Positions 17,288 through 34,851 of a stretch of DNA of 64,000 nt are shown piece by piece (within the stretch, counting starts at the first letter, position 1; each line of letters begins with the position of its first letter). Origin of the DNA: Haloterrigena alkaliphila (GTDB taxonomy: Archaea > Halobacteriota > Halobacteria > Halobacteriales > Natrialbaceae); assembly GCF_017352155.2 (NCBI RefSeq), contig NZ_CP071462.1, positions 1,860,001 to 1,924,000 of the forward strand, given 5' to 3'. The translations under genes and the position numbers were made by a program. Below the pieces are notes generated by a model. That model worked only from the letters and a program-made list of their open reading frames with translations. It had not been told where the DNA came from and did not search any database.

Positions 17288-17978
17288 GAGTGCTGCATAG
17301 AACTAGTTTGTATTCAGGGATAAGGGATTGGGCCTGTGGCTGAGAATCGGTCAGTCTCTGACGCGATCGTTCGCTGCGCCTCTAGTAGTGACGGAGGCCA
17401 CTAAGAGATCCTCGTGTTGCTAGGCTTTTGTCTACCACCCGATTTCCAACCTACAATAACACTCCCCCTCACATGGCACTAGGAGCCTCTTTTAGACAAA
17501 TCATTCCGAGACACTTCCCAAAACATAATTTTACTGTTGGTTAGTGTGGGCGATGTTACAAACCAGAACTGAGGATATGGCGCTTCTTTCACTGATATAC
17601 AGGTGATTTCGTGTAGTAGCCTCGACAAGGAAGATATTAGTCCCGTTTCTGAGATACGATTTGGATTACACGGGATTTCCAAGATGCTTGTAGTGGTTCT
17701 CCAAGCATCGCGCGTGGTGGCTACATCAGTTGCTATCTCTACTGATGAAATGATTTCTTCAGAATTATGTTGCGGCGATTGTGATCGATGGCGATTCCCA
17801 GCTAAACTCTTCATTTGAAGTGTGTTACGTGATTTCACTCACTACCGCGGTCCGAAATATATCGCTCTTTGCTTGCCTGGTGAATCGTTACGAGGATATT
17901 TTCTTCTTCAAAACGTGATGTTCGGCTGTGAGCCGAGGGTTTAAAAGTACACCCTTATTTCAATTCTGTGACTCTCAG
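17288..17978. other. Non-coding stretch between transposase-like gene and integrase
   Basis: About 690 AT-rich bases. Short overlapping frames exist on both strands, but none has haloarchaeal codon use or a recognisable protein. It probably contains promoters for both divergent neighbours. I see nothing else. Confidence 0.5.
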
Positions 17979-19394
17979 ATGAGTAGGGCTAAAGAGAACG
18001 AGTTGACTCTTCCGGATCTGCCGGAGAAGTTAGCCACACGAATTGAAGAACAGTCACGTGAATTAGAGAATGGTGATACGATTGTCGGGAACGGCGAGAG
18101 CCAACTCACCAGCGAACACCCTGTGAGTGTTGTTGAGTATTTTCTCTCTGTGAACGTCGATGACTGGGCAGACTGGACGTACAAAGACTACTCGTACGAC
18201 TTGACGAGATTTCTGGAGTACTGCGAATACGTCGACATCGATGATCTCTCAGAGCTTTCGTCGCGTGATCTTGTCGGGTTCAAACAGTGGCGGAAGAAGG
18301 ATGGGAACATCGGACTTGCAACCCTACATGGGCAACTGGCGAATATCCGTGTACTGATCAGATGGTGCGAACAGGTCGAGATTGTCGACGAAGGGGTAGC
18401 GGACAAGATAGAACTGCCAGATCTCGACCCGTCTGACATCGTCTCGTACACTCGGATTACATCAAAGCAGGCACAAGAGATTGTGGACTACTACGATCAA
18501 TTCGAGTATGTTCCCCGAGAGTTTGCCGAGTTCGCGTTGATATGGGGGGTGTTATGCCGCCTCGGCGGCGTTCGATCCTTAGACCTTGAAAGCTACAACC
18601 GCGAAGAAGGTTATATCGAACTCGAACACAGACCCGACGAAGAGACTCCATTGAAGAACGGCGAAAGTGAGGTGGAGGGCGAAGGTGGCGAACGGAAAAT
18701 CAATCTCCCAGACTGGCTCTGTGATATCCTGAACAGATATATCGACGGAACTGGAGATCCCGAACACCCGAAACGAATCGAGGTTGAAGACGAGTACGGT
18801 CGGAAGCCACTATTCACAACCAAGTATGGCCGAGTGTCGGAATCAACTCTCCGACGAGACCTGTACAGAGTCACCCAGCCGTGTCGGCGTGGGCAAGAGT
18901 GTCCACATGAGATGGATCCTGATGAGTGTGATGCTAGAACCAACAACAATCTCCTCAGTCGGTGCTTGTCTGCGGTGTCGCCTCATCCCGTTCGGCGAGG
19001 AGGTATCTGCCATCAGCTCAAGCAAGGCGTATCGAAGGATACTATCTGCGAACGCGCGGACGTGTCTCGAAAGGTGCTGAACAAGCACTACGACCTGCGC
19101 ACGAAAGAAGAGGCGCGACAACAGCGCCGGAACGAGCTCCGGAAGCATTTAGAGGGGTACGAAGAACCAACCCACGAGACGCGAACTGGCATCCAAGAAC
19201 AGATCCCACTTCTTGGCGACATTGTATCGGCGCAGGATAAGGTGAACACCGCCTTGAAGCACAACGCTGCGCGTGCTCAAGCGTGTAAAGCAGTAGCAGG
19301 GTACATCGTCTTCGTGGCGCTCATCAGTTTCAATTTCGGCCTCATGGGAATCGGGTTCGACCCAATCGCATGGGAGCTAGTTTTGAATCTGTGA
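17979..19394 (+). CDS. Tyrosine recombinase / integrase with C-terminal membrane segment
   Basis: 471 residues from ATG 17979 (MSRAKENELTLP); an upstream start adds 17 unlikely residues. Residues about 70-150 form a SAM-like core-binding domain (WTYKDYSYDLTRFLEYCEY). The catalytic part shows Arg in LCRLGGVRSLDLES, an HPVRRGG box (usually HxLRR) and the tyrosine in LNKHYDLRTKEEA. After it come a charged helix and one hydrophobic segment (AGYIVFVALISFNFGLMGIGF), a feature of some haloarchaeal integrases. It likely moved at least part of this island, but it is not next to the tRNA. Confidence 0.85.
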   Translation: MSRAKENELTLPDLPEKLATRIEEQSRELENGDTIVGNGESQLTSEHPVSVVEYFLSVNVDDWADWTYKDYSYDLTRFLEYCEYVDIDDLSELSSRDLVGFKQWRKKDGNIGLATLHGQLANIRVLIRWCEQVEIVDEGVADKIELPDLDPSDIVSYTRITSKQAQEIVDYYDQFEYVPREFAEFALIWGVLCRLGGVRSLDLESYNREEGYIELEHRPDEETPLKNGESEVEGEGGERKINLPDWLCDILNRYIDGTGDPEHPKRIEVEDEYGRKPLFTTKYGRVSESTLRRDLYRVTQPCRRGQECPHEMDPDECDARTNNNLLSRCLSAVSPHPVRRGGICHQLKQGVSKDTICERADVSRKVLNKHYDLRTKEEARQQRRNELRKHLEGYEEPTHETRTGIQEQIPLLGDIVSAQDKVNTALKHNAARAQACKAVAGYIVFVALISFNFGLMGIGFDPIAWELVLNL

Positions 19395-20408: not shown

Positions 20409-21190
20409 CGAATGTCAGTATTCGACATCTGATACTGGTTCCAAATTTAGAAATTATTAATAGCATGCAGTACGTAGGGATGGTAGGCCCATGGCACTGC
20501 TTTCCGACGAGAAACGCTGGACGGACAGTGATCACGGGATACCCGCCGTCACAAGCATTAACCAACCAATATACTGAATTATATCCTACCCCCAACAATT
20601 CTAAACTAACTCGGAAAACATTAGATGGTACATCTAAAATACTGCTCAGAACGGTATGTAGGGAACACTGACACCGTTCACTACTTAATTCGTACCTATA
20701 AAGTATGAATGCAATGGTCGGCACGAGTAACGATGTTTTGCTACGTCTGGAAGCACAGCCGATAGTTTCCCGGTGTTATACTAGGGAATATATTTTGAAG
20801 AGACAGTGACTACCCGTCCTTAGTCTTGTGCGAAAAGCTATACGCCAAATCTTATGTCCTACAGGGATATTCTATCTGTGTAATATGCTTGTGGGTTATA
20901 CGTGGTCGGCTACGTTTCGTGTCTTTCACGCGCATTTCACTCCCTAATTGTTGGCCGGATAACCATCACCCGTCAAACACCTGACGCAGGAGTACATAAA
21001 CAGTACCTAAGTTTGAGGCCAAGATGTCAGTTTCTTCTCTGAGGAAAAATCTCCCTACAAACCCTCTTCCACCGTGTTAGGTTAGTTTCAGATGCTCGCT
21101 CTCTGAATTCCACAGAAACTTTACACACCAGAATGCTTAACTTCTCTCGGCGAATTCTCCCGGATGTCGCTCTCGTTGTGAGGGCGGCAG
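20409..21190. other. AT-rich intergenic region upstream of pbeA
   Basis: About 780 bases with low GC and no credible gene. The open frame at 20335-20724 on the minus strand has unnatural composition and overlaps the operator repeats. A promoter for the rightward operon presumably lies here or nearer the gene. Confidence 0.5.
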
Positions 21191-21288
21191 GGGGACGTGA
21201 CGTCCCCGAAAGCAAGTATCGCAGTCCACGGGTCCTCCTGGCAGAGTTCGCCCGTGGATGACGGCGGCGCCGAGGAAGCCCCGGCACC
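21191..21288 (+). other. Stack of three hairpins upstream of pbeA (possible structured RNA)
   Basis: A GC-rich island within AT-rich DNA contains three consecutive inverted repeats. GGGGACG-TGA-CGTCCCC is at 21191-21207. TCCACGGG (21225-21232) pairs with CCCGTGGA (21251-21258). GGCGCCGAGG (21266-21275) pairs with CCCCGGCACC (21279-21288) at 8 of 10 positions across a 3-base loop. It ends about 80 bases before the pbeA start, so it could be a 5' leader or a leftover structured RNA (for example the 3' end of an IS200/IS605 element). No homologue could be checked. Confidence 0.45.
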
Positions 21289-21367
21289 TTACGTTAGCCC
21301 TAGGCTTTCTCACCTTATCAAGGTTGCGCGTCGCTGCACCGTACGCACTAATCACCACGCTACACAC

Positions 21368-23734
21368 ATGGCGACTTCAGACGCGCACGACGACACGCAT
21401 CGTACGATCACTACCCTCAAGTCACTCGACTCCGCTGCGGCAGTCAAGGCGTTCATTGAGGACCAGCGCGCCGACAAAGGGCTCAAATGGGTTCGTGTCG
21501 GCGATCAGAACGCCGTTGGCACCGTCGAGATGGGAGGTAACCCCCGGAACGCACTGATGGAACGCGTAACCAATATGGTCGACGCCATCACCGAACGCGA
21601 GGTCATCGAGCAGTACGGGGACCTCGACACCGCGAAGGAAAAACTCCCGGACAATCCGCGGGATGCCGTCTCCGAACTGCTCGGGCTGCCGGCCGACGGC
21701 TACGACGGTGTCGACCAGAGTACCGTCCGAGAACTCGCGGAACTTGCGGCCATCCGGCTGGCCGACGCTGATGCCGACAACGGGCTGACCATCGAACTGG
21801 AAGACCAGGGAATCGGACAGGCCCCCAACGACTTCCCGGACACGTTCCTGTCGCTGCACGGCGACAACAAGAACAGCTGGCCGTTCCTCATCGGGAAGTT
21901 CGGTCAGGGTGGCAGCAACTCGTTCCGATTCGCCGACTACACGATTATCATCTCTCGGTCCCACGAGGGCGGCCCGGTCGGCTGGACAATCGTCCGCGAG
22001 AACAAGGAACACGAGACGGAGGACGGCGACATCGTCCGGGCGTACGAATACGCGGTCCGTCCGGATGGGACCATCCCGCAGCTTCCAGTGTCCGCAGCAA
22101 CCGAACTCGAGGGCGGCGGGTCAATCGTCCGGCTCGTCAACTACTACGCCGACGGCTTCACGGGACGCGGCGACGACAAACTCAAGCGGTCGAACGTCGC
22201 CGGTGTCACCAAGCACCTGCTGTTCGCGTCCGTCTACCCGATCCGGGTCGAGGACCACCGACAGGCCGAAGCCCCGCACGCCACTATCAAAGGCGGCCGG
22301 CATCTCCTGAACGACTCCAAATACGTCGACGAAGTCGATAACGATCTCCCGGACGCCGGCATGGCTCAGGGTCAGCGCACCCAGGGCGTGATGGACGTGA
22401 CCACCGATTACGGCGACCTCGAGGTCCGCTGGTGGATCGTCGACCCGTCCCAGTCCGGCCAGGATGACAAGAAACGGGACGTCGTCGAGCGGTTTGTGGA
22501 CCCGTCGCAGCCGATGGTCTTCACGCTGAGCGGCCAGGTGCACCACGAGGAAACCAAGCGCACGCTCGAGGGCAACAACCTCGGCTTCATCAAAGACCGT
22601 CTCATCGTCGAGGTGAACTTCGACAGCCTCGACAGTCACAAGCGGGAACTTGTGTTCTCGAGCACGCGCGACCGCGCGCTTGAAGGCGAGGAATACGACC
22701 ATGTGAAACAGCGGCTCGTCGAGGCGTTCAAGACCGATGACCAGCTCGCGGCACTGAACGACTACTACCACGAGAAGGCTCGGTCCGGCGGTGAGTCCGC
22801 TGACGAGGCCAACGAAGATCTGGCCGATCTGATGTCGACGTTCGACATCGAGGCCGACGACATCCCCGGACTTGAGGTTCCCGGCGGCGACGGGACCCGC
22901 ACCGACGGCGGTGACGGGGCCGGTGGCGACGGATCCGGTGGGGACCCGGGCTCCGGCGGTGGAGGCTACGTCCCCGACCCGGTCGACGACCTGAAGCCGG
23001 AACCGACCTGGCTCGAAATCGCCAACCCTGCTGCGGAACGCGGGGAAGCGATCACGGCCCGGCAAGGCGGCACGCTCTCGCTCCACGTCCGACTCGATGC
23101 CCAGGACCGGTTCGATGAACGCGACGACGTCACGTTCACGCCCGTGTTCACGGGCGCCACCAAGGACGCGTTCACGCAGAAGACCCGCCGTCGGCTGAAG
23201 AACGGGCACACCTACCTGGTGTTCGACATCACCGACGATATCGACATCGGCACGACCGGTGAAATATCGGTACGGCTGACCTGGAACGGCGGCGAGGACT
23301 CGCTGTCGAACACCGCTGCGGTCGAGATCGGGGAACCGATCGACCGGGATACTGGGACCAACCAAACGTCCGGCTCGGTGTCGCCGGAGATCATCCCCCA
23401 TGAGAACAACGGTACCGACGTACCGTTCAGCTTCGGCGAGGCCAGCGTCGTCAACTACATCGAACGCGATGATGGACAACGCGACCAAGTTCATGTCGCA
23501 CTCTTCAACGAGAACATCGCGCCGATCCTCGATAAGGTCACGCGCAGCGAGAATGTGCTGAACCGGTACACGCGGGAGTACATGGCGCACATCGCGTTCC
23601 TGGCGACGATGATGCAGCACCAGGACAAACTGGATGGGCTCGACGAAGAGCTCCGCAACCAGTACCTCAACCAGACCGCGCTTACTCTCATGCAAGCCAT
23701 CGCGAAGAACGTCGACCCGACGGACCTCGCCTAA
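21368..23734 (+). CDS. pbeA: PbeA-like GHKL ATPase of a phosphorothioation-linked defence operon
   Basis: 788 residues from ATG 21368; the frame is open upstream but reads through the hairpin region. A GHKL ATP-binding site is visible: N-box RNALMERVTNMVDA (60-73), G1-type EDQGIGQAP (145-153) and the lid GKFGQGGSNSFRF (176-188). A Gly/Asp-rich linker at about 505-535 separates it from a beta-rich C-terminal region. It is the first gene of a rightward operon that faces dndCDEA, the arrangement known for archaeal Dnd-Pbe systems where the Pbe arm blocks virus propagation. The letter A follows gene order and is an inference. Confidence 0.75.
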   Translation: MATSDAHDDTHRTITTLKSLDSAAAVKAFIEDQRADKGLKWVRVGDQNAVGTVEMGGNPRNALMERVTNMVDAITEREVIEQYGDLDTAKEKLPDNPRDAVSELLGLPADGYDGVDQSTVRELAELAAIRLADADADNGLTIELEDQGIGQAPNDFPDTFLSLHGDNKNSWPFLIGKFGQGGSNSFRFADYTIIISRSHEGGPVGWTIVRENKEHETEDGDIVRAYEYAVRPDGTIPQLPVSAATELEGGGSIVRLVNYYADGFTGRGDDKLKRSNVAGVTKHLLFASVYPIRVEDHRQAEAPHATIKGGRHLLNDSKYVDEVDNDLPDAGMAQGQRTQGVMDVTTDYGDLEVRWWIVDPSQSGQDDKKRDVVERFVDPSQPMVFTLSGQVHHEETKRTLEGNNLGFIKDRLIVEVNFDSLDSHKRELVFSSTRDRALEGEEYDHVKQRLVEAFKTDDQLAALNDYYHEKARSGGESADEANEDLADLMSTFDIEADDIPGLEVPGGDGTRTDGGDGAGGDGSGGDPGSGGGGYVPDPVDDLKPEPTWLEIANPAAERGEAITARQGGTLSLHVRLDAQDRFDERDDVTFTPVFTGATKDAFTQKTRRRLKNGHTYLVFDITDDIDIGTTGEISVRLTWNGGEDSLSNTAAVEIGEPIDRDTGTNQTSGSVSPEIIPHENNGTDVPFSFGEASVVNYIERDDGQRDQVHVALFNENIAPILDKVTRSENVLNRYTREYMAHIAFLATMMQHQDKLDGLDEELRNQYLNQTALTLMQAIAKNVDPTDLA

Positions 23735-23937
23735 CCACAGCACCAGCCGCAGCGGATCACCTGCGGCATCGGCGCTGACATCGTACTGCTCCCGAGTCGC
23801 TGTCAGGACAGTTGACGTCCTTTACCGCTGACGAGGGAGAAGAAACCACGAGGATTACGGTGAAACACACGGATCCATCGCCCCGGGAATAACAGGTATG
23901 GGAACATATTAACGGGTCCAACCCGATTTGAAGGCAA

Positions 23938-26088
23938 ATGAGCGGGCCAGATACAGCTGCAGACGGTGAACACGGGTTGCGGCAGCTGCAGCTGCAGGAA
24001 GAATATCGACTGGGTGACGACCCACTGAACGAGTTCTATATCCCGGCACTGCGCCAGAGTACTCGATACGACCGGGCGGCCGGCTTTTTCGACAGCAAGT
24101 CGTTACAGTACGCCGCCCAGGGCATCGCTGGCCTGATCGCGAACGGCGGATCGATGCGGCTTATTACGAGCCCGAATCTCAAGCCAGCGGACATCGAGGC
24201 TCTCCAGGCAGCCGACAACCGGGAAGCCGAACAGTCTGTCCTTGCTGACCGGCTTGAGGCCACGCTCTTCGAAGGAGACTATCTGGAGTTCGTGAACACA
24301 GACCGGTTCCAATGCCTCGCGTGGATGGTAGAGCAGGACCTGCTGGATATCCGGATCGCGTATCTCCCCGAGGGCGACGAGGCAAATCCGTTCCGTCTCT
24401 ACCATGAAAAGCTCGGCGTGATCCGGGACGATGCCGGGCACCGGGTAGCGTTCAGCGGTTCGATCAACGAAACCGCTGCCGGGTGGACGGACAACTACGA
24501 GTCGTTCGACGTATTCCGGAGCTGGCAGCCGGGCGAGGCCACACGTGTGGACAATAAGGAACAGGCGTTCGAGCAGCTATGGGACAATGATGATCCAATG
24601 GTGACAGTCCGCGAACTACCAGAGGCCATCGAGGCTGGACTGGAAGAGTGCAGTCCCGGTACGGTCGATGGTCTGCCAGCGCTCGAGATGTTTTTCAGTG
24701 AAGAAGGAGCCAACGGTAGTCGGACTATGAAAAATGAAGACGAAATCGAACTTTGGGATCACCAACAGGAAGCTATCCAGTGGTGGCGCAACCACGACTA
24801 CCAGGGACTGTTCGCTATGGCAACCGGGTCTGGAAAGACGCTGACCGCGCTCCGTGCGGCCCGGCTCCAGGCGGACGTCCGGCTGACCGTGGTGGTAGTC
24901 CCATCCAAAGTCCTACTCCAACAGTGGAAGGAGGAGATCCAGTCCGTGTTCGGGTCCGACATCGATATCCAAGAGTGTAGCGGGGACACGGACTGGAAGG
25001 CGAACATGACATCGCTGGTCGACCCGTTCCGGGTCGGCTCATTGGACGCGGTCCACGACCTGCCCCGGTCCGTGGTCCTGACCACGCTGCACACGGCGTC
25101 AAGCGAGACGTTTCTGAACTACCTGAAGCACGTGCCGCCGGAACGGCTGCAACTCATCGTCGACGAGGTGCACCGCGCAGGAGCCCCAACCTTCCAGTCG
25201 ATCTTCGACATCGATGCCGGCCGCCGAATCGGTTTGTCCGCGACACCGGACCGGCAGTGGGACGAGGAAGGGACGAACGCGATCTACAGCTACTTCGGGG
25301 GCCACGAGCCGTTCCGGTTTACGACGCAGGAGGCGATCGAGAATGGCTACCTGACGGAGTACGAGTATCATCCGATCATCTGTGAATTGACGCCGCAGGA
25401 ATTCGAGGATTATGCGGAGCTGTCGGTGCAGATCGAGCGGCTGTCGGCGCAGATCAGTTCGAACGATCGGGTGGACGAGTCGGTTATCAACCAGCGGGAT
25501 CACCTCCTCCGGGAACGTGCCGATATCAAGAAGACGGCAGCGCGGAAGCCGGACCGGTTCGAGGCGTTCCTGTCGACAGATCATCCGCGGCCGGCCCTGG
25601 TGTTCTGCGAGGACACCGAGCAAATCGAGGAATTGGAACACCAGCTGGAAGCCCATACAGACATCGATTACGGCGTATATATCTCCAACCGGGAGGAGGA
25701 ACAGGCCGAGGCGTTCTACCGGTTTGAACACGATCTCCTCGACTATCTGCTGGCGATCAAGTGTCTCGACGAAGGCGTCGACGTCCCGGACTGTTCGACC
25801 GCCGTGATCATCGCGAGCTCCCGGAACAAGCGGGAGTTCATCCAGCGACGTGGACGTGTACTCCGCCAGACAGAGGCCGTGGACCGGGCGCAGATCTACG
25901 ACATGCTCGTCCTCCCAGGGCTAGGCGCTCCGCCGGACGACGAGCGTGCCCGATCTCTGGTCAAGCAGGAACTCGAACGGGCAAAAATCCTGATGGAAGC
26001 AGCCGAGAACCAGGATTCGGTCGAGCAGCGTTTAGCAGAAGAGTTGGATACATATGGACGGAGTTTCAAACACCTAGCATACATCTAA
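23938..26088 (+). CDS. pbeB: PbeB-like PLD-SF2 helicase
   Basis: 716 residues. Residues 1-220 are a phospholipase-D-like domain with YHEKLGVI (H156-E-K158) and FSGSINETAAGW. The rest is an SF2 helicase: Walker A ATGSGKT (295-301), DEVH near 408, GLSATPDR near 432, CLDEGVDVPDC near 610 and QRRGRVLRQ near 636. This PLD-helicase arrangement is common in DNA-targeting defence proteins: the helicase translocates and the PLD domain may cleave. Second gene of the operon; its stop is one base from the next ATG. Confidence 0.78.
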   Translation: MSGPDTAADGEHGLRQLQLQEEYRLGDDPLNEFYIPALRQSTRYDRAAGFFDSKSLQYAAQGIAGLIANGGSMRLITSPNLKPADIEALQAADNREAEQSVLADRLEATLFEGDYLEFVNTDRFQCLAWMVEQDLLDIRIAYLPEGDEANPFRLYHEKLGVIRDDAGHRVAFSGSINETAAGWTDNYESFDVFRSWQPGEATRVDNKEQAFEQLWDNDDPMVTVRELPEAIEAGLEECSPGTVDGLPALEMFFSEEGANGSRTMKNEDEIELWDHQQEAIQWWRNHDYQGLFAMATGSGKTLTALRAARLQADVRLTVVVVPSKVLLQQWKEEIQSVFGSDIDIQECSGDTDWKANMTSLVDPFRVGSLDAVHDLPRSVVLTTLHTASSETFLNYLKHVPPERLQLIVDEVHRAGAPTFQSIFDIDAGRRIGLSATPDRQWDEEGTNAIYSYFGGHEPFRFTTQEAIENGYLTEYEYHPIICELTPQEFEDYAELSVQIERLSAQISSNDRVDESVINQRDHLLRERADIKKTAARKPDRFEAFLSTDHPRPALVFCEDTEQIEELEHQLEAHTDIDYGVYISNREEEQAEAFYRFEHDLLDYLLAIKCLDEGVDVPDCSTAVIIASSRNKREFIQRRGRVLRQTEAVDRAQIYDMLVLPGLGAPPDDERARSLVKQELERAKILMEAAENQDSVEQRLAEELDTYGRSFKHLAYI

Positions 26089-26089
26089 C

Positions 26090-26275
26090 ATGCAAGATTC
26101 TGTTTCCAACGACGAACTGCGGACGCTTATCCAGGAAAAGGCTGAGGAACATAATCTACCGCCTGAACTTCTCCTCGAGATCTATGAGGCCGAGCGTGAG
26201 GTCGTGAACATGGACCGACGGGGATCAATTCTGAAAGATGTCAGGGCGTTACTGGAAGACGAAGTCGACAACTAA
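26090..26275 (+). CDS. 61-residue helical protein inside the pbe operon
   Basis: 61 residues, acidic and almost fully helical by composition (SNDELRTLIQEKAEEHNLPP, LLLEIYEAEREVV). It starts one base after the pbeB stop and ends 12 bases before the pbeC start, so it is translated within the operon. No family recognised. It might bridge the helicase and the SMC-like ATPase, or act as an inhibitor. Small genes like this are easily missed, so it may be an uncounted component. Confidence 0.68.
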   Translation: MQDSVSNDELRTLIQEKAEEHNLPPELLLEIYEAEREVVNMDRRGSILKDVRALLEDEVDN

Positions 26276-26287
26276 CACCGCAGACCT

Positions 26288-28264
26288 ATGGAAATCACTG
26301 AACTCACGATCGAAAACTTCCGGCCCTACTACGGCGAAGTAACGATCAAGCCGCGAACGGAGGCTGACCACCCACTAATCTTGATCCGTGGGAAGAACGA
26401 CACGGGGAAAACATCGCTCTTTACCGCGATCCGGTTCTGTCTGTACGGAGCGGAAAACCGGGCCGAGTACACAGAGCACATCAACCGCACCGCTGCCGAG
26501 GAGTCAGGAGGAACCACCCGGGTTGAGATGACGTTCCTCCATGATGACGAGGTCTACACGATCGAACGCGGTATCAACTACAGCCAGGTCGATTCGGCCG
26601 ATGACCGGCAGGCAGCGAACTGGTACCGGGAGGTCCGGGGACCGAACGGGGACATTGTTGAACAGGGAGCCAAAGAACAGGAGTACCGCCGGTTTATCAA
26701 CCGGATTCTCCCGGAGAACGTCGCCCCGTTTTTCCTCTTCGACGCGGAGGAACTTCAGCGGTTCGAGGAGTCCCATGACGAGACGGTGCGTGAATCGATC
26801 GAGACCGTGCTCGGCATCCAGGAGATCGAGAACGCGGTCGACGATCTGAACGACCGGAAACGGAACTTCGACCGCGAGTACGCCGATTTTGAATCGACCG
26901 CAAGCGAGGTCGAAGCGTTACGGGAAGAACTTCGTGACGTGATGGACGAACTCGACGAGATTGGTGACGATACCGAAGGCGAGATCGCCGAGATCCAAGA
27001 GAAGATTGAGACGAAGAAAGCCAACCGCCGCGAGGTCCGCCAGGAACTGGATAAAATCCAAGACACGGAGCCACTTCGCCAGGAGAAACAAGACCTTCAA
27101 GAGGAGTTGCACGCTGCTGAAACCGACCTCCAGGAGACAATCGAGCAGCGGGACAAGCTCCGCCGGGAACTGGGCCCGATCATGGCTGCCCGTGGCCGAC
27201 AGGTGTTCCGAGATAACTATGATATTGAAGGTGCCAGCGGGGAAGCCGAAGTCCTTCATCAGATCATTAACGATGATGATCGCGATACCTGTATCTGTGG
27301 GGAGCCGTTGACCGACGAGAAGCACCAGCAGCTCTCCGAGCGGTATGTGAAACTTCATTCACCACAACGCCGCCGCCTGACAGCCCTCATGGAAATTTGT
27401 CAAAACGTCGATACTGTTGTCTCCTCCGAACTGGATCGGTATCAGCAGTACCAGGCGACGATCCGCCGTCTTCGCCAAAACATTGAAGATACGCAGGCGG
27501 AGATCGAGGAGATCCAGTCCCAGATCGATGAGATCGAGCAAGCGGCGAAGGCTGGCCTGAAAGAGAAAGAAACGCAACTGAACAACGAAATCCAAGAACT
27601 CGAAGGGACGCTAAACAAGAAGCGCGAGCGGAAGGGCGAACTCACCAGTGAGAAACAACGACTGGAGACCCGGATCGCCGGGATGGAAGAGGCTGACAGC
27701 GAAGCGGAACGATACCGGGAACTATCCACCCTGGCCGAGCGCTGTGAACAAGCGTTCGAAGACATCAAAGAGGAGTTGGTCGAAAGCCGCCGAAAGTCCG
27801 TCGAGGACCACGCAACAGAGACGTTCCTCAAACTAACAAACCGGCCGGACTACTACCAAGGAATAGAGATCACGGAAAACTATGAACTGCAGGTCAAGAC
27901 GCCGAACGCCACCCGGAGCTTAGAAGAGCAGGACCCGAGTGCCGGCCAGACACAGATTATTGCGTACTCGTTCATCGCCGGCCTCAGCAAGTACACGACG
28001 CGGAACGCCCCTGTCGTGATCGATACACCGATCGGCCGGCTGGATCCGGAGCACAAGGCCAACCTCGTTGACTTCTACCACGAGTTCAGTGATCAGGTCA
28101 TCATCCTCTACCAGCCGAACGAACTCTCTACAGATGATATCGGGGAGATGGCCGAGTTCATCGCCGACCACTACGAGATCACGATCCGGGATGACGATCT
28201 CAGCTCGTCGACGATCAAGGAACTCCCGGATGTCATGGAGGCCGCCGCGGAGGTGGAATCATGA
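26288..28264 (+). CDS. pbeC: PbeC-like SMC/DndD-type ATPase
   Basis: 658 residues. Walker A GKNDTGKT (35-42) is in an N-terminal half that begins MEITELTIENFRPYYG, as in RecF/SMC/DndD proteins. A long coiled coil covers about 170-320 and 360-520 around a CICGEPL element near residues 335-337 that resembles half of a zinc hook. The C-terminal half carries the Walker B and D-loop region VVIDTPIGRLDPEHKANL near 575. It resembles DndD encoded in the same window, so the two arms use related ATPases. Its stop overlaps the next ATG. Confidence 0.78.
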   Translation: MEITELTIENFRPYYGEVTIKPRTEADHPLILIRGKNDTGKTSLFTAIRFCLYGAENRAEYTEHINRTAAEESGGTTRVEMTFLHDDEVYTIERGINYSQVDSADDRQAANWYREVRGPNGDIVEQGAKEQEYRRFINRILPENVAPFFLFDAEELQRFEESHDETVRESIETVLGIQEIENAVDDLNDRKRNFDREYADFESTASEVEALREELRDVMDELDEIGDDTEGEIAEIQEKIETKKANRREVRQELDKIQDTEPLRQEKQDLQEELHAAETDLQETIEQRDKLRRELGPIMAARGRQVFRDNYDIEGASGEAEVLHQIINDDDRDTCICGEPLTDEKHQQLSERYVKLHSPQRRRLTALMEICQNVDTVVSSELDRYQQYQATIRRLRQNIEDTQAEIEEIQSQIDEIEQAAKAGLKEKETQLNNEIQELEGTLNKKRERKGELTSEKQRLETRIAGMEEADSEAERYRELSTLAERCEQAFEDIKEELVESRRKSVEDHATETFLKLTNRPDYYQGIEITENYELQVKTPNATRSLEEQDPSAGQTQIIAYSFIAGLSKYTTRNAPVVIDTPIGRLDPEHKANLVDFYHEFSDQVIILYQPNELSTDDIGEMAEFIADHYEITIRDDDLSSSTIKELPDVMEAAAEVES

Positions 28265-28776
28265 CGCGCATGATCAAAACCGGCAAGCAACACATCTACA
28301 TCCGGTACGTTGAACGAGCAGAAGCATCCCGTGGCGATGAGGATGCAGATGATGAAGCCGACGAGGAAGACACGGGTAGTGACGGAGAACCCAGCGCAAG
28401 TGATAACTACTTCTTCAAATACCAGTACGAACTGTTCAGCTTCGGAGCTATCCTCGGCTTCCTCCACGACGAAAAGGTCGATGCCGATGCTGCCTACGGC
28501 CAGGACATCCGCCGGGTCGAGGACATCAGCGACGACAACAAGCATCGCCAGACCATCGATTTCATCACGAAGGTCGTCCAGCTCGAGGAAGGAATGGAAG
28601 AGGACGACGCCTGGGAGGAAGTACTCCGGTACGCGGATGCCGGTGTCGCACGGTTCGATGAGGAAACAGATGACGACCTCGACTTCGTGCGGTTTGTTGA
28701 AGATGCGTCCGAGGACCTGTGGCGGGAGCGGTTCACGGACGCCATCGGAACACCGGGCGACGTCGGTACCCTCTAA
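28261..28776 (+). CDS. pbeD: PbeD-like small acidic protein
   Basis: 171 residues, starting on the ATGA overlap with pbeC. After a short basic start comes a strongly acidic linker (residues about 25-45, mostly D/E). Then a DndE/phosphorothioation-associated-protein-4-like segment follows: FKYQYELFSFGAILGFLHDE and IDFITKVVQLEEG. In bacteria such proteins accompany Dnd restriction arms. Last gene of the operon. Its role is not known; it may recognise modified DNA or regulate the ATPases. Confidence 0.65.
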   Translation: MTRMIKTGKQHIYIRYVERAEASRGDEDADDEADEEDTGSDGEPSASDNYFFKYQYELFSFGAILGFLHDEKVDADAAYGQDIRRVEDISDDNKHRQTIDFITKVVQLEEGMEEDDAWEEVLRYADAGVARFDEETDDDLDFVRFVEDASEDLWRERFTDAIGTPGDVGTL

Positions 28777-28848
28777 CTCCGGCAGTACGTTCGCTTACAC
28801 CGGAAACTCCTAATGGAGGAGACTGGCATTGGCCGCCACCTGTGATTG

Positions 28849-29421
28849 CTATGCTCGTGCAGTGCCAGTGACCCAAATGGACTCCGTTTCAACCGCTATT
28901 TGACCAAAACCCGCTGCAGATAGCATTTGTCGTATCTCGTCGGCGTCGTAATACTCGAAATAGCGGTCGTCCACAGGATCTGTGTCTGCTGGAGCGCGCT
29001 TCGCTGACAGGAAGATAACCCCTGTGTCACAAAGGATGCGCTGGAATTCTTGGAGAGTCGGGATCGCATCTGACCGGGGAATATGGAGGAACGAGGCAGA
29101 ACTCCAAACCCCGTCGAACGAGGCATCCTGAAACGGGATCTGCCGCATATCGCCTTGGACCACCGCTGATTCTGATGTATTCCTGTCTACGACTTGGAGA
29201 AACGCCGATACTACGTCAAGGCCGACTACTTCATACCCTCGGGACGTAAACGTTGCAAGGTCTGACCCGGGGCCACAGCCAATGTCTAAAATACGCTTAC
29301 CGTCCAGCGCCTCACAGAATTCCGTGCCATAGCGGTCAGCCGTTGATACGGAAAGATATTTTTCCACAAATCTGTGGGTGTTCGTCCCGTAGACAGTACG
29401 CGTTCGAGAAACGGCATCCAT
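28849..29421 (-). CDS. Class I SAM-dependent methyltransferase
   Basis: 190 residues. Motif I is GKRILDIGCGPGSDLATF, followed by an acidic residue in VGLDVVSAF, then VVQGDMRQIPF and FDGVWSSASFLH; these are the signature parts of small Rossmann methyltransferases. There is no DNA-methylase NPPY/DPPY motif, so DNA is not the obvious substrate. It sits between the converging pbe and dnd arms, 81 bases downstream of dndA and on the same strand. It may be a passenger or an accessory factor. Confidence 0.75.
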   Translation of the reverse strand: MDAVSRTRTVYGTNTHRFVEKYLSVSTADRYGTEFCEALDGKRILDIGCGPGSDLATFTSRGYEVVGLDVVSAFLQVVDRNTSESAVVQGDMRQIPFQDASFDGVWSSASFLHIPRSDAIPTLQEFQRILCDTGVIFLSAKRAPADTDPVDDRYFEYYDADEIRQMLSAAGFGQIAVETESIWVTGTARA

Positions 29422-29502
29422 ATTCTCACAGCCAAGGCCCTTCTACAGCTGTCGTGAGATGCCGAGAAACGAGCCTTCTCGGGGAGACACCTTCCAGCGT
29501 GG

Positions 29503-30705
29503 TCACAGCTGGACGCGGCGTTTCTTTGGGACGATGTCCGCGATGGTGTCGGCCACGTAGTCAATCTCGTCCGCGGTTGTGTCCTTCCCGAGACCGAAGC
29601 GGACTGCGGATTCCAATCGTTCTTCGTCGTCCGTGATTGCTTCTAACACGTGGGACGTTTCGACCGTGGTAGTTCCTCCGTCTTCTGCGGTGGAACACGC
29701 TGCACCCGCCGCGGCGATGATCCCGTGCTGGTTTAACTCACGTGTCAACAGATAGTTGCTGACACCACGGAAACTCACGTTCAAGTTGTGCGGCAGCCGG
29801 TGGTCAGGATGCCCGTTCAATGCCAGGTCATCAAGCCGGTCGGTTAGCTGGTCCCAAAGCCGGTCGCGAAGGGTTTCCACGTGGGCAACCCGGTCGTCCT
29901 GGTTAGATACGGCCAGGTCCACGGCTTTCCCGAGGCCGACGATCCCGGGGACGTTGAGCGTACCGGACCGCAGCCCGCTCTGGTGGCCGCCGCCACGGAT
30001 GAGCGGGGTGATATCGTTTTTCGGGTGCGGGCGGCGAACATACAGTGCCCCGACACCTTTCGGGCCGTAGATCTTGTGCCCGGAGATCGACATAAGATCG
30101 ATCCCGAGGTCCTCAACATCGAGTTCAAGATAGCCGAGAGCTTGGACCGCGTCAGTATGGAAATAGATATCGTGTTCGTCAGCGATCTCCCCGATCTCCG
30201 CCAGCGGTGCCACGGTGCCGATCTCGTTGTTCGCAGCCATGATCGAGATCAGCAAGGTCTCCTCTTGGACCGCTGCGCGTACGTCGTCCGGGTCAACCCG
30301 GCCGTGTTCGTCGACCGGGAGATAGGTGATATCAACTCCGTCCGCTTCGAATACCTCACAGGGCTCGAGTACAGCTTCGTGTTCCGTGACCGCGGTGATG
30401 ATATGTGGGGTTTCCCCTTGCTGCAATGCGTGCTCGACCGGGCCGCGGATGGCAAGATTGTCCGACTCCGTCGCCCCACTGGTGAAGATAATGTTCTTTG
30501 TACTCGGGGCACCGATGGCGTCCGCAACCTGGGTGGCGGCGGTTTCGACGCCGGTCTTCGCATCGCGGCCGGCCTGATGGGTGTCGTTCGCCGGGTTGCC
30601 GTAATGCTCCGTGTGGTATGGCTGCATCGCCTCGAGCACTTGTTGGTCGACCGGGGTAGACGCGTGGTGATCGAGATAGATGGGTGTCGGAACGTTCTCA
30701 CTCAT
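29503..30705 (-). CDS. dndA: DndA cysteine desulfurase
   Basis: 400 residues. IscS/DndA fold: H109 in TEHEA, PLP lysine K211 in SISGHKIYGPKG, and the persulfide-carrying Cys337 in AAGAACSTAEDGG. It takes sulfur from cysteine and delivers it to DndC for DNA phosphorothioation. It is the last of the leftward dndC-D-E-A genes, 15 bases after dndE. A general iron-sulfur cluster desulfurase is possible by sequence, but the neighbourhood favours DndA. Confidence 0.87.
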   Translation of the reverse strand: MSENVPTPIYLDHHASTPVDQQVLEAMQPYHTEHYGNPANDTHQAGRDAKTGVETAATQVADAIGAPSTKNIIFTSGATESDNLAIRGPVEHALQQGETPHIITAVTEHEAVLEPCEVFEADGVDITYLPVDEHGRVDPDDVRAAVQEETLLISIMAANNEIGTVAPLAEIGEIADEHDIYFHTDAVQALGYLELDVEDLGIDLMSISGHKIYGPKGVGALYVRRPHPKNDITPLIRGGGHQSGLRSGTLNVPGIVGLGKAVDLAVSNQDDRVAHVETLRDRLWDQLTDRLDDLALNGHPDHRLPHNLNVSFRGVSNYLLTRELNQHGIIAAAGAACSTAEDGGTTTVETSHVLEAITDDEERLESAVRFGLGKDTTADEIDYVADTIADIVPKKRRVQL

Positions 30706-30720
30706 GGTATCATCTCTGTT

Positions 30721-31113
30721 CTATTCATCGGGCTTTAACTCACCGGGAATGACCTCGTAGAAGTCTGCGAGGCTGTCTATTCGGCCATTCAGGGTTTTGA
30801 TGCCGCGGTTTGTGTGGGCGACGAAGTGCTCATACAGCTCCTCGTCAGGGTCCCGGCCCTCATTGATCAGCCGCTGCCGGACCATCGCGATATACAATGG
30901 ATCGTGCTCACCGAGCAGGGTGTATCGGTTGATCGCTTTCCCGTCGGTATCGTACTCCTCCGGGTTTGGAGGGCGTGGCTCGCTCAGTGAATAACAGAGG
31001 CCGGCCCGTGCCAGGTAGTTCGGTGTGAGCCCGGTTGTGGACTGCAGGTACTGGAGATAGTTTGTTACACCTTTGTCGAGTTTCACACGATTGAAGTCAG
31101 CGCCTTTACTCAT
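30721..31113 (-). CDS. dndE: DndE
   Basis: 130 residues. Begins MSKGADFNRVKLDKGVTNYL and contains LTPNYLARAGLCYSLSEPR, typical of DndE, a small DNA-binding protein that prefers nicked DNA in characterised systems. It overlaps dndD by 8 bases. This protein is essential for modification in studied dnd clusters. Confidence 0.85.
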   Translation of the reverse strand: MSKGADFNRVKLDKGVTNYLQYLQSTTGLTPNYLARAGLCYSLSEPRPPNPEEYDTDGKAINRYTLLGEHDPLYIAMVRQRLINEGRDPDEELYEHFVAHTNRGIKTLNGRIDSLADFYEVIPGELKPDE

Positions 31114-33178
31114 TGTTGAATCCCTCTAACTGGATCTGGTGGTCGGTATCGATTTCGATATCGTCGTTCCGGAGTACGTCATCGGGGCCGTCGGACCAGA
31201 AGTATCCTGGTTCAACATGTGTCTGCCCCATCTCTTCATCGTAGGTCAGGTGGTACTCGGCGGCGATATCCTCTTCCAAGATTTCGTAGAACTCCTGCGT
31301 GATCTCGGTGTCGGTGGAGAAGAGCAGGACCTGGTGTGAGGCGTCCGGGAAGAAGTTCCGCACGAGGTTTTCCCGATGCTCTTGGTCGAGGCGGCCGAGC
31401 GGGGTGTCGATCATGAACGGGAGTGGCCGGTCGGAGATATCGGCCAGTGCCCACAGCATGGCCGTGGCAAAGATCTGGCGTTCCCCCGCGGACAGTTGGG
31501 ACTGGTTTTTGGACTCGCCACCGACCGTTTTGATCTGGATCGTGGTCTCGTCAGGGTCGATTTCAACCTGGTCGTAAAACTGGCTCTTGTTCGACAGGGC
31601 GAGGTAGTGGTCGGTTAGAACGGATTCCAGCCGTTTGAGCTTCTGCTGTGCCAGTTTGTCCTGGTAGTCCTGCACGGCGCTCCGGACGTCCTGGGCGAGG
31701 TCAGCGCGGTCGGAGACATCGTCAAGGTCCTCGTACCGTTCGATCTTGTTCTCCCGTTCCTGTTCCAGTCGACCGATGTAGTTCTCGAGTTCTTCTAGCC
31801 GGTTCTCGAGCTGCTCGATCTCAGTTGTGAGTTCGCCGCGTTCCTCAGTGAGGTCGTTGATTTCTTTGATGAGCGGGGAGAGCACGGACTGTTCCGGTGT
31901 CCGGCTCAGTTTGTCTTCGATGTCCTGCCGCTCTCGGGTGGCGCGTTCGAGTTCGTCCGTGATCGATCTGAGTTCATCCGGCACTTCCGATAGTGCCCGG
32001 TCGGCGACCGTATACATTTCCTGGCGTTGGCGTTCCGAGAACTCGCGGGCAAGCCGGATTTCGTCCGGAAGGTCATCGGCCAGTCGATCGAACAGTTCGG
32101 ACTGAAGCGTCTGGACGATATCCTTCGACTTGTCGACGGAGACATCGAGACCGTCCCAGACCTCGTCCTCGTCCGCGAGCTCGTCCAATTCGGTCACTAC
32201 TCGGTTTTGTGCGGCGATCTCGGCCGTAGCTTCTGACTCCATTTCAAGCCGGTCAACGACCTGGTTACAGAGGTCGGGTGCCAGAGCGAACGGATAGCTC
32301 CCCCGGACGTGGTCCCGAATGTCTTCTTCCAGGGATTCGATCGTGGCGTTCAGTTCGGCACGGCGTTCCTTGTGCTTGTCCCGTTTTTTGGCGAACCCAC
32401 CGCCTTCCTGCGATAGTTCTGTCTCTTTCTGCTCGATTTCGGCTTCAATCTCTTCGAGTCGTGCGGTCTTTTCCGCGAGGTGTTCCTCGACCTCTGTCTG
32501 CTCGTTTCGGTATTCCTCGATGTCCTGATCAAGCTCTTCAATTTTCTCCACGATTTCTTCGTGGCCGCTTTCATCGAGCTTGTTGGTCTGGTAGATCTGG
32601 AGGTCGGTGTCAAGTCGATCGACAAGATCGAGCCCGAGGAGGGAGTACAGGGAGTCCTGAAAGTCGTCGCCGTTTTCGATGGCGGTGGCGAGCTGCTGGA
32701 TTTTCTCTCCGTCGAAGAAGAAGAGTTCGGACATGCCCGGGGGGATAAGTTCCTTGAGGAAGTCCTCCCACTGGTCTTCTTCCAGGTCCGAGAGCTGGCT
32801 GCCGTTCCGTTTAATGGTTAGATCCTCAACGATGCTCTTGCCGCGGTCGCGCCATTTCCGGGTGACGGTGTAGTGGTCGGTAGACCCGAAGTTCCCGTAC
32901 TCGAATTCGACGGTGATTTCGGCCTCTGTTGCCTGATGCCCGTTCGATTCATGCAGATAGTCTTGCAGGTGTTTCTCGTATTCACTGCGGCTCGTCCGAC
33001 TACCAAAGGCGCTCTGTCCGTGGAGACAAAGCTGGACGGCTGTGAAGAACGAGGTTTTCCCCGCACCGTTCTTGCCGCCGAAGAGCACGATCGGCTGGTC
33101 GTCGGTCGTCTGCAGGTTGAACGGGTTTTCGCCGCCGTAGGGTCCGTAGTTAGAGATTAGGACACGTGTGAGTTTCAT
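31106..33178 (-). CDS. dndD: DndD SMC-like ATPase
   Basis: 690 residues. Walker A GKNGAGKT (35-42) in an N-terminus MKLTRVLISNYGPYGG, long coiled coils (about 200-300 and 370-500), then FMIDTPLGRLDQEHRENLV as Walker B/D-loop. It supplies ATP-driven conformational work, perhaps nicking, in the dnd pathway. Its start overlaps the dndC stop as ATGA, and its end overlaps dndE, so dndC-D-E are translationally coupled. Confidence 0.9.
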   Translation of the reverse strand: MKLTRVLISNYGPYGGENPFNLQTTDDQPIVLFGGKNGAGKTSFFTAVQLCLHGQSAFGSRTSRSEYEKHLQDYLHESNGHQATEAEITVEFEYGNFGSTDHYTVTRKWRDRGKSIVEDLTIKRNGSQLSDLEEDQWEDFLKELIPPGMSELFFFDGEKIQQLATAIENGDDFQDSLYSLLGLDLVDRLDTDLQIYQTNKLDESGHEEIVEKIEELDQDIEEYRNEQTEVEEHLAEKTARLEEIEAEIEQKETELSQEGGGFAKKRDKHKERRAELNATIESLEEDIRDHVRGSYPFALAPDLCNQVVDRLEMESEATAEIAAQNRVVTELDELADEDEVWDGLDVSVDKSKDIVQTLQSELFDRLADDLPDEIRLAREFSERQRQEMYTVADRALSEVPDELRSITDELERATRERQDIEDKLSRTPEQSVLSPLIKEINDLTEERGELTTEIEQLENRLEELENYIGRLEQERENKIERYEDLDDVSDRADLAQDVRSAVQDYQDKLAQQKLKRLESVLTDHYLALSNKSQFYDQVEIDPDETTIQIKTVGGESKNQSQLSAGERQIFATAMLWALADISDRPLPFMIDTPLGRLDQEHRENLVRNFFPDASHQVLLFSTDTEITQEFYEILEEDIAAEYHLTYDEEMGQTHVEPGYFWSDGPDDVLRNDDIEIDTDHQIQLEGFNNE

Positions 33179-34680
33179 GCGAGATCCTCGTATTCAAGGT
33201 CATATTCCCACCGTTCCGGCTCTTCACCGTCGATCTCGGCTGCGACCTCCTGGATCGAGCGCCAGTCTTCGCGGAAGATCTTATCGATCTTGTCGTAGAT
33301 GGCCGCCCGGCGTTTCATGCCGTGGTGCTGCAGTTCCGTGTCAAGTAGCCGTTTGATGAGTTTCGGTGGGATATCGTGGGCCTCACATACGTCTTCTAAC
33401 ACGGCTGCTTCCTCTTCTGTAAACGTCCCCAGATCATCTTTAGTCCATTCCAGTTCATCGTCCATGACCTCGTTGTAGATCCGGGGCACAGAATCCTCCC
33501 AGTCCGCTTCTTCCTGCCGCCACAGCCGGCGGATCTCCCGGAGCTCCTCTTCCTGAATGAGCTCCAAGTAGTCCATCTCGTCGCCGCGAAGTTCGTTCAC
33601 CTGCTTCTGCGTCTCCAACAGTTTCCGGAGGAGATGCTTCCGGAACTCAAGCTTGTAGGCCCGCGGGATCACACCGGTCCCGCCGTTGTTCTTTTCCCGG
33701 ATATAGCCGTGCTTTCGGCCCTTCATCTCGCGGTACATCGGCTTCTTGTCCGGGTCCTGAGTTTCCTTTAGGAGGTTCCGGTAGTCGAGCAACGGCTTCA
33801 TCCAGTCTTCACCGCCATCAACCATGTTCTCCATCGCTTTGTCCTCACTGACGACGGTACACGTCCAGCAGCCGAACCGGCTATTTCCGCAGGACGGCGT
33901 GTTCGTGTCGATCACCATGGGACACTCGTCGTCAGCCTCTTGGTACAGTGCGGCCAGATCCCGGTTGTTCTTCCCCCAGGGACACTCGTTCTGGAGTAGA
34001 TAGGTCCAGACGTCGTCTACCAGCCAGTCCTCGATCGGTGTGTAGACGTAGGCGCTAGCGAACTTCGAATGCCGGGATAGGTTGCTGCCTTCGATGCTGT
34101 GCAGGTTCATGACCTGTTCACGGGTTGCGCTCTCCGCCTTGCGGGCACCAAGCACCACGATCACTTCCCCGTGGTCGGAAACCTTGTCCCGGATAAACTG
34201 GTCCGCTGGATCAATTTTTAGCCGGTCCGTGCACCAGCGGAAGTTCTGGTTCGGGGCCGGGTAGCCACGGCCAAGGAGATTCACCCAGAACGAGTCGCTG
34301 ACATCAGGATAGACCTTTTGTGCCTCGAACGGGAGATCCTCTTTCTCTGCATACTCGTTAATATTCTCGAGGGTGGATGTAATATGGTTGACAATCTTCG
34401 GGGTCTCAACAAGCGTATCGCTCGAGATCACATAGATCGGGTTTGTCTGTTTCTCATCCGGCAGATCCTTGACTGCATACCAGATCAGCTGGAGCACCGT
34501 GGTAGAGTCCTTGCCACCGCTATAACCAATCACCCAGGGCCGGTCGTCAGCAATATAGGTCTCCTGAATCTCCTTTTGAATATCCTGAAGGCCTCGATAT
34601 TCAAAAACGGACGTCTTCCCGTCCGATGATTCGACATCGTCTGCTTTGCCGCTACTCGATGCCATTCTTATACCGTCCAT
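33175..34680 (-). CDS. dndC: DndC PAPS-reductase-like sulfurtransferase
   Basis: 501 residues. ATP-pyrophosphatase loop SGGKDS at 54-59, and four cysteines (C150 in FRWC, C264 in SCG, C271 and C274 in GCWTC) that match the [4Fe-4S] ligand layout of DndC. It activates the DNA backbone with ATP for sulfur incorporation. The start at 34680 is chosen because a GGAGGT site lies 8 bases upstream; an internal ATG at 34665 (MASSSGK) is the alternative. First gene of the leftward unit. No dndB is present. Confidence 0.9.
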   Translation of the reverse strand: MDGIRMASSSGKADDVESSDGKTSVFEYRGLQDIQKEIQETYIADDRPWVIGYSGGKDSTTVLQLIWYAVKDLPDEKQTNPIYVISSDTLVETPKIVNHITSTLENINEYAEKEDLPFEAQKVYPDVSDSFWVNLLGRGYPAPNQNFRWCTDRLKIDPADQFIRDKVSDHGEVIVVLGARKAESATREQVMNLHSIEGSNLSRHSKFASAYVYTPIEDWLVDDVWTYLLQNECPWGKNNRDLAALYQEADDECPMVIDTNTPSCGNSRFGCWTCTVVSEDKAMENMVDGGEDWMKPLLDYRNLLKETQDPDKKPMYREMKGRKHGYIREKNNGGTGVIPRAYKLEFRKHLLRKLLETQKQVNELRGDEMDYLELIQEEELREIRRLWRQEEADWEDSVPRIYNEVMDDELEWTKDDLGTFTEEEAAVLEDVCEAHDIPPKLIKRLLDTELQHHGMKRRAAIYDKIDKIFREDWRSIQEVAAEIDGEEPERWEYDLEYEDLA

Positions 34681-34688
34681 TACATCGG

Positions 34689-34694
34689 ACCTCC
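34689..34694 (-). promoter_or_regulatory. Shine-Dalgarno site of dndC
   Basis: GGAGGT on the minus strand ends 8 bases before the ATG at 34680. It is an unusually good match to the 16S 3' end for a haloarchaeon, where many transcripts are leaderless, and it decides the dndC start. Confidence 0.65.
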
Positions 34695-34851
34695 CATAAG
34701 ACTTGGCTAATCAGAGTGAAAGTAAAACCACCGACTATATCGTAGTGCGGGCTGTAACCGGCCTGAGACGCCGTCTCACGCTTGATATGGTTATGGCGAG
34801 ACTGAAAGACGATCCGAGGAAAAAACCGCTGTCAGGCCGCTTTTTATGGCT

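What the first reader, a model, noticed from the sequence alone, without database searches (positions are those of the whole stretch)
21368..34680. Archaeal DNA phosphorothioation locus with modification (dndCDEA) and restriction-like (pbeABCD) arms facing each other
Seen: dndC, D, E, A by motifs (SGGKDS and four Cys, DndD Walker motifs, DndE start, desulfurase Lys and Cys) on the minus strand, facing a rightward operon with a GHKL ATPase, PLD-helicase, SMC-like ATPase and a small acidic protein. Known: archaeal Dnd-Pbe antiviral systems pair these components. The locus appears intact, although surrounding island genes are broken. dndB is absent.
Basis: partly seen in the sequence, partly recalled or inferred. 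Interest (0 to 1): 0.85.

Follow-up and report, generated by a model that had tools for sequence, protein, structure and literature searches.

The report
DNA-sulfur defence locus with extra ATPase
This salt-loving archaeon carries an intact copy of a known antiviral system that marks its own DNA with sulfur, and the copy travels with an uncatalogued clamp-type ATPase whose bacterial relatives sit beside a different DNA-sulfur system, so that ATPase may be an overlooked part of sulfur-based immunity.

Summary
Minus strand: DndC, D, E, A, each supported by profiles. The GHKL protein (21368-23734) is not a Pbe gene and matches no defence or NCBI family model.

Two things go beyond the known. (1) The GHKL gene is inside the block shared with another haloarchaeon; homology starts 240 bp before it and stops just beyond dndC. 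A separate bacterial clade of the same protein family is linked to Ssp, the other DNA-phosphorothioation system, in 12 of 12 cases (Ssp background about 2%). It is predicted to be a MORC/Hsp90/MutL-like ATP clamp with an Ig-like domain. (2) PbeB is homologous to the part of DndC that binds DndD; residues whose mutation breaks DndC-DndD binding correspond in PbeB. So PbeB is probably a docking subunit on PbeC, not a disordered regulator.

Known system, new variant; phosphorothioate and antiviral activity are unmeasured.

The parts
21129..21367 (+). leader before the GHKL gene, conserved with genome G297 although the gene itself has diverged; contains an inverted repeat TCCACGGG..CCCGTGGA (21225-21258)
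   Evidence: Left edge of the homologous block with G297; sequence comparison; single match in the genome
21368..23734 (+). GHKL ATPase (788 aa): N-box E65xxxN69xxDA, G1 D146xGxG, G2 G176xxGxGG; GHKL plus S5 module about 45-476, acidic/Gly linker, Ig-like strand domain about 549-655, helical C-terminus. Proposed accessory clamp/sensor of the phosphorothioation system
   Evidence: Motifs; relative L047 hits HATPase_c_3; fold matches to Hsp90/MORC/MutL/GyrB Z 15-20 on a moderate model, pLDDT 63.5; no PADLOC, NCBIfam or Pfam hit of its own
23938..26088 (+). PbeA: PLD/HKD nuclease fused to SF2 helicase
   Evidence: PDLC02707 1.3e-210; ResIII, Helicase_C, PLDc_2; HxK..D at 156 and GSIN at 174
26090..26275 (+). 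PbeB: 61-aa helical protein homologous to DndC 425-470; proposed docking subunit on PbeC
   Evidence: PDLC02708 4.3e-20, Sp-DndD PF20306 2.3e-9; hhalign to DndC E 1.4e-7; AF2 pLDDT 83.6, two helices
26288..28264 (+). PbeC: CxC-type ABC ATPase, DndD paralogue
   Evidence: PDLC02709 1.4e-224; CIC at 335-337; DndD equivalog model 207.5 bits, under its 245.85 cut-off
28261..28776 (+). PbeD: small acidic protein, DndE cognate according to PMC10853773
   Evidence: PDLC02758 4.2e-33
28849..29421 (-). class I SAM methyltransferase, 190 aa; part of the shared block; 38% identical to a methyltransferase beside the SspA-like gene of a Devosia plasmid
   Evidence: Methyltransf_11 6.9e-19
29503..30705 (-). 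DndA cysteine desulfurase
   Evidence: PDLC02657 2e-148; TIGR03235 404 bits, under its cut-off of 480; SGHK 208, ACS 336
30721..31113 (-). DndE
   Evidence: TIGR03184 77.4 bits over cut-off; PDLC02669 1.3e-58; closest solved structure 7x4e DndE, E 7.6e-48
31106..33178 (-). DndD ABC ATPase (no CxC motif)
   Evidence: TIGR03185 483.7 bits over cut-off
33175..34680 (-). DndC sulfurtransferase, with the PbeB-like DndD-binding tail at about 424-470
   Evidence: TIGR03183 585.7 bits over cut-off; PF20306 at 424-469

Best explanation
An intact, mobile DndCDEA-PbeABCD antiviral locus that travels with two extra genes. DndA supplies sulfur, and DndC, held on the DndD-DndE scanning complex by its C-terminal tail, places phosphorothioate on a short motif in host DNA (established for the family; inferred here, probably G-PS-ATC as in other haloarchaea). 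PbeC-PbeD is a second DndD-DndE-like scanner. PbeB, a free-standing copy of the DndC tail, docks on the PbeC head where DndC would dock on DndD, and couples the scanner to the PbeA nuclease-helicase, which stops replication of DNA lacking the mark (docking inferred from homology; coupling to PbeA is a guess). The GHKL protein is an accessory of phosphorothioate immunity: an ATP-closed dimeric clamp of the MORC/Hsp90/MutL type with an Ig-like domain, acting as a sensor or DNA clamp beside the Pbe effector (association shown by genomics, mechanism inferred).
For: Profiles for all eight core proteins; close PbeA in ten of 391 haloarchaeal genomes, nine with dndC, D, E and A adjacent. Block 21129-34725, including GHKL and the methyltransferase, is shared with G297 while the flanks held are unrelated. 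Ssp-linked clade of the GHKL family: 12 rows, all with Ssp genes in the locus or genome, one clade at 100/100; SspB in only 8 of 385 alphaproteobacteria. PbeB versus DndC: hhalign E 1.4e-7, shuffle test z about 6.7 with 0 of 2000 shuffles as high, Pfam Sp-DndD hits DndC tails; E. coli DndC L458/E462/R471, whose mutation disrupts DndD binding (PMC12193691), align with window DndC L445/E449/R458 and hence PbeB I31/E35/R44, R44 being invariant in nine PbeBs. PbeB predicted helical, not disordered.
Against: GHKL is absent from seven of ten haloarchaeal genomes with a close PbeA, occurs without Dnd in G132, lies about 16 kb away and split in two frames in G030, and is separated from pbeA by 203 bp holding a TATA-like motif. 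The Ssp-linked and Dnd-linked GHKL clades are not sisters. The GHKL model is of moderate quality. Coupling of PbeB to PbeA has no direct evidence. No phosphorothioate or antiviral measurement.
Confidence: 0.62

Rival explanations
1. The GHKL gene is an independent single-gene defence element that merely sits in the same island; the locus is then an ordinary Dnd-Pbe system.
For: Own spacing and a likely separate pbeA promoter; GHKL without Dnd in G132 and distant family members with no phosphorothioation genes; most Dnd-Pbe loci lack it.
Against: Homology with G297 begins just upstream of GHKL and ends just past dndC, with unrelated flanks; 12 of 12 members of a bacterial clade sit with Ssp; co-occurrence in haloarchaea p 4.8e-5, or 1.4e-3 without the window's genome.
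Confidence: 0.33
2. PbeB is a disordered negative regulator (antitoxin-like) of PbeA, as proposed in PMC10853773.
For: Small size and divergence; proposal in the literature.
Against: Homology to the DndD-binding tail of DndC; predicted helices with pLDDT 83.6 from a single sequence; deleting pbeB abolishes protection (PMC6459918), whereas loss of a negative regulator would be expected to be toxic.
Confidence: 0.2
3. The module is silent or decaying in this host, like neighbouring island genes.
For: No known families in several ORFs left of the locus; a GHKL homologue is split in G030.
Against: All ten ORFs are full length with catalytic motifs kept and close homologues elsewhere.
Confidence: 0.1

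Closest known systems
DndCDEA-PbeABCD of Haloterrigena jeotgali A29 (PMC6459918)
   Same: Same eight genes, same order within each operon, no dndB, haloarchaeal host
   Different: The arms converge here, with a methyltransferase between them, and a GHKL ATPase precedes pbeA; the text read of that paper describes a four-gene cassette and does not mention a GHKL gene
CxC ABC-ATPase systems (PMC10853773)
   Same: PbeC carries the CxC motif; PbeD assigned as DndE cognate; PbeB is the small protein
   Different: That work calls the small protein mostly disordered and independently acquired; here it is homologous to the DndC tail
SspABCD phosphorothioation systems (SspE, SspFGH partners; PMC8092258)
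   Same: A clade of the same GHKL family sits beside SspA-D in bacteria
   Different: Single-strand phosphorothioation with an unrelated ATPase; no SspB in this genome; the GHKL protein is not SspE or SspFGH as described
MORC / paraMORC GHKL ATPases of restriction-modification systems (PMC2292703)
   Same: GHKL plus S5 module, genomic link to a modification system and a helicase-nuclease
   Different: Ig-like domain and helical C-terminus; no recognised nuclease domain; the text searched names no phosphorothioation partner

Membership tests
DndCDEA phosphorothioation module | DndC, DndD and DndE over NCBI equivalog cut-offs | tested here: met
   585.7/290.4, 483.7/245.85, 77.4/71.85 bits
DndCDEA phosphorothioation module | DndA cysteine desulfurase over the equivalog cut-off | tested here: inconclusive
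   404 bits versus 480 cut-off, but PADLOC DndA 2e-148 and operon position
DndCDEA phosphorothioation module | phosphorothioate in genomic DNA | not testable with these tools
   needs mass spectrometry or single-molecule sequencing data
PbeABCD cassette | four genes in order A-B-C-D beside dndCDEA | tested here: met
   PADLOC models PbeA, PbeB, PbeC, PbeD in order
PbeABCD cassette | PbeC is CxC-type rather than DndD or SMC | tested here: met
   CIC motif; below DndD cut-off
   no PADLOC hit; PbeA is the next gene
Bacterial DndBCDE-FGH | DndB present | tested here: not met
   no PF14072 match in the whole genome
GHKL ATPase superfamily | N, G1 and G2 boxes conserved | tested here: met
   E65, N69, D72, D146, G150, G176, G181 invariant and G148 nearly so in 15 sequences; HATPase_c_3 hit in a relative
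GHKL ATPase superfamily | HATPase fold followed by S5-type transducer | tested here: met
   fold matches over 45-476 to Hsp90, MORC, MutL, GyrB, Z 15-20, model pLDDT 63.5
MORC/paraMORC family | family-specific motifs or clade membership | not tested
   no reference paraMORC sequences were placed in the tree

The most novel reading that the evidence does not exclude
A family of MORC-like GHKL clamp ATPases is a general, overlooked component of phosphorothioate-based immunity, recruited separately by Dnd-Pbe systems in haloarchaea and by Ssp systems in bacteria, where it reads phosphorothioate-lacking DNA or infection and controls the effector; and PbeB is a stolen or ancestral DndC docking tail that lets a second DndD-like scanner carry a nuclease instead of a sulfurtransferase.
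Probability: 0.4. Interest if true: 0.75.

Novelty: new variant of a known kind. Interest (0 to 1): 0.5.

Why it matters
How Pbe tells marked from unmarked DNA and how its four proteins fit together is unsolved. The PbeB-DndC homology gives an immediately testable assembly model with named residues. The GHKL link, found with two unrelated phosphorothioation systems, points to an uncatalogued effector or sensor and connects MORC-type ATPases, known as transposon silencers in eukaryotes, with a backbone-modification immune system.

Tried and rejected
GHKL as PbeA: rejected. GHKL as a phage gene: no match among 50,697 phage records. GHKL as part of SspFGH or SspE: the SspFGH paper text holds no GHKL or HATPase term and no PADLOC model matched five bacterial relatives. 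A single origin of phosphorothioation linkage in the GHKL family: not supported, the two linked clades are separated. A hidden Ssp system explaining GHKL here: no SspB in this genome, and the only SspD-profile match is dndC itself. The leader inverted repeat as a repeated attachment site: only one copy in the genome. Plasmid co-occurrence gave few records (8 with the GHKL family, 2 shared with SspD), so it adds little. Literature searches for GHKL with phosphorothioation found no paper describing the link; subscription papers and supplements were not searchable, and the 2020 ABC-ATPase classification (PMC7544218) was not held. The GHKL model leaves 231 residues below pLDDT 50, so its C-terminal part is poorly described.
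Full report
What is there. The window is part of a 4.27-Mb haloarchaeal genome. On the minus strand dndC, dndD, dndE and dndA are contiguous or overlapping full-length genes with decisive profile hits: TIGR03183, TIGR03185 and TIGR03184 over their curated cut-offs, and PADLOC DndA at 2e-148 although the DndA equivalog model stays under its cut-off. On the plus strand, PADLOC finds PbeA, PbeB, PbeC and PbeD in order at 23938-28776. The GHKL gene 21368-23734 precedes them and is not a Pbe gene. A 190-aa methyltransferase lies between the two arms. dndB is absent from the whole genome, as in the four haloarchaeal clusters studied in PMC6459918.

Known system. PMC6459918 described the same eight genes in Haloterrigena jeotgali A29, showed d(GPSA) in G-PS-ATC, protection against virus SNJ1 needing pbeB, pbeC and pbeD absolutely and pbeA partly, and dependence on phosphorothioate. 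PMC10853773 reinterpreted PbeA as an HKD nuclease-helicase, PbeC as a CxC ABC ATPase and PbeD as a DndE cognate. The window fits: CxC motif in PbeC but not DndD, HKD-type motif in PbeA. Ten of 391 sampled haloarchaeal genomes have a close PbeA (over 700 bits), nine of them with dndC, D, E and A adjacent in the stretches read, and the tenth (G183, L050) with only a DndA-like end seen. The core is therefore already known; DndE is closest to the solved DndE 7x4e.

PbeB and DndC. Pfam's Sp-DndD model hits both PbeB and residues 424-469 of DndC, and also DndC of Halorubrum trapanicum and of the G137 locus, though not E. coli DndC. A profile of nine PbeBs against a profile of nine DndCs gives one match, 425-470, E 1.4e-7; a direct alignment scores 68 against 33 +/- 5 for shuffled PbeB, and no other locus protein scores above 38. 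In E. coli DndC the segment 433-482 contacts the globular head of DndD in an AlphaFold3 model, and L458D/E462A/R471A disrupts binding in pull-downs (PMC12193691). An E. coli DndC aligned here puts these residues at window DndC L445/E449/R458, and through the PbeB-DndC alignment at PbeB I31/E35/R44; in nine PbeBs R44 is invariant, position 31 is always aliphatic, and position 35 is E in eight and Q in one. AlphaFold2 on PbeB alone gives two helices, pLDDT 83.6. This supports PbeB as a docking subunit on PbeC, the DndD paralogue. The further step, that PbeB brings PbeA to the scanner, is inference. The papers read do not state this homology.

The GHKL gene. Its own sequence passes no family cut-off, but the relative in G132 hits HATPase_c_3 at 4e-7, the N, G1 and G2 boxes are conserved, and the model matches Hsp90, MORC, MutL and GyrB ATPase modules over 45-476 at Z 15-20, with strand-rich residues about 549-655 resembling Ig-like domains in weaker hits. 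Model confidence is moderate. In G297 the GHKL gene sits at the same place, 49% identical, while pbe and dnd proteins are about 80-95% identical. DNA homology with G297 runs from 21129 to 34725, with about 1.5 kb extra beside the methyltransferase there, and nothing matches in the flanks held. So GHKL, pbeABCD, methyltransferase and dndAEDC have moved as one unit. In the tree the window's GHKL is sister to that of G030 rather than G297, whereas its dnd and pbe genes are closest to G297, so the GHKL gene has been exchanged or has diverged unusually; G030's copy is about 16 kb from its Dnd-Pbe genes and split in two frames.

Link with Ssp. Distant relatives fetched without regard to context turned out to lie beside SspB (DUF4007), an SspC-type ATPase, SspD and SspA, confirmed by PADLOC SspD 1.9e-116 and SspB 1.5e-112. 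The most frequent neighbour families in 37 GHKL loci are exactly these four: SspC-like in 11 loci, SspD-like in 10, SspB in 9, SspA/DndA-like in 7 (one of these being DndA of G297). The two Ssp-clade members on short contigs have SspB in the genome, in G393 on the contig that also carries the GHKL start. All 12 Ssp-linked rows form one clade at 100/100; a few are close relatives, so they are not 12 independent events. In 385 alphaproteobacteria SspB occurs in eight, and both genomes with an Ssp-clade GHKL are among them, one of the two being the centre of the sample. Outside this clade and the window's clade no phosphorothioation genes were seen near GHKL, apart from a DndB-annotated gene beside the Rhodococcus relative, so linkage is a property of two clades, not of the whole family. 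In haloarchaea three of four genomes with the close GHKL have Dnd-Pbe (p 4.8e-5; 1.4e-3 leaving out the window's genome).

Verdict. An ordinary, intact member of a known system, plus an accessory ATPase that appears uncatalogued and is tied to phosphorothioation in two unrelated settings, plus a homology that reassigns PbeB. Steps shown: gene identities, shared block, linkage, PbeB-DndC homology. Steps inferred: docking of PbeB on PbeC, role of GHKL, activity in this strain.

Noticed in passing
28849-29421: Small methyltransferase between the two arms belongs to the mobile block (72% nt identity with G297) and has a 38% identical relative beside an SspA-like desulfurase and the GHKL gene on a Devosia plasmid (L060).
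   Followed up: partly
21129-21367: Leader before GHKL with an inverted repeat is conserved with G297 but occurs once in the genome and is absent before the GHKL genes of G030 and G132.
   Followed up: partly
23895-23937: TATA-like CATATTAA about 33 nt before the pbeA start, conserved in G297, suggests pbeABCD has its own leaderless promoter.
   Followed up: no
L059 4282-6612, L060 11591-13951, L065 4536-6869: A histidine-kinase-like protein with two HATPase domains, and in some a partner gene, recurs beside Ssp-linked GHKL genes, resembling the HEF_HK family of PMC8011034.
   Followed up: partly
L058 9322-11200, L064 7020-8893: A SIR2 plus DUF262 pair sits between Ssp genes and GHKL in two distant bacteria, a possible further effector.
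   Followed up: no
L050 14780-18666: Genome G183 has a second, divergent PbeA/PbeC-like pair directly downstream of its pbeABCD.
   Followed up: no
L104 7731-7922: Halorubrum trapanicum plasmid pCBA1232-02 has dndCDEA followed by a Pbe-like cassette whose small protein belongs to Pfam Sp-CxC instead of Sp-DndD, so two small-protein types occur in haloarchaea.
   Followed up: no
17928-19394: Integrase-like gene left of the locus, with homologues near GHKL relatives in G132, G140 and G149; no Pfam hit at E 0.001 (named an integrase by its first annotation here from sequence look only).
   Followed up: partly
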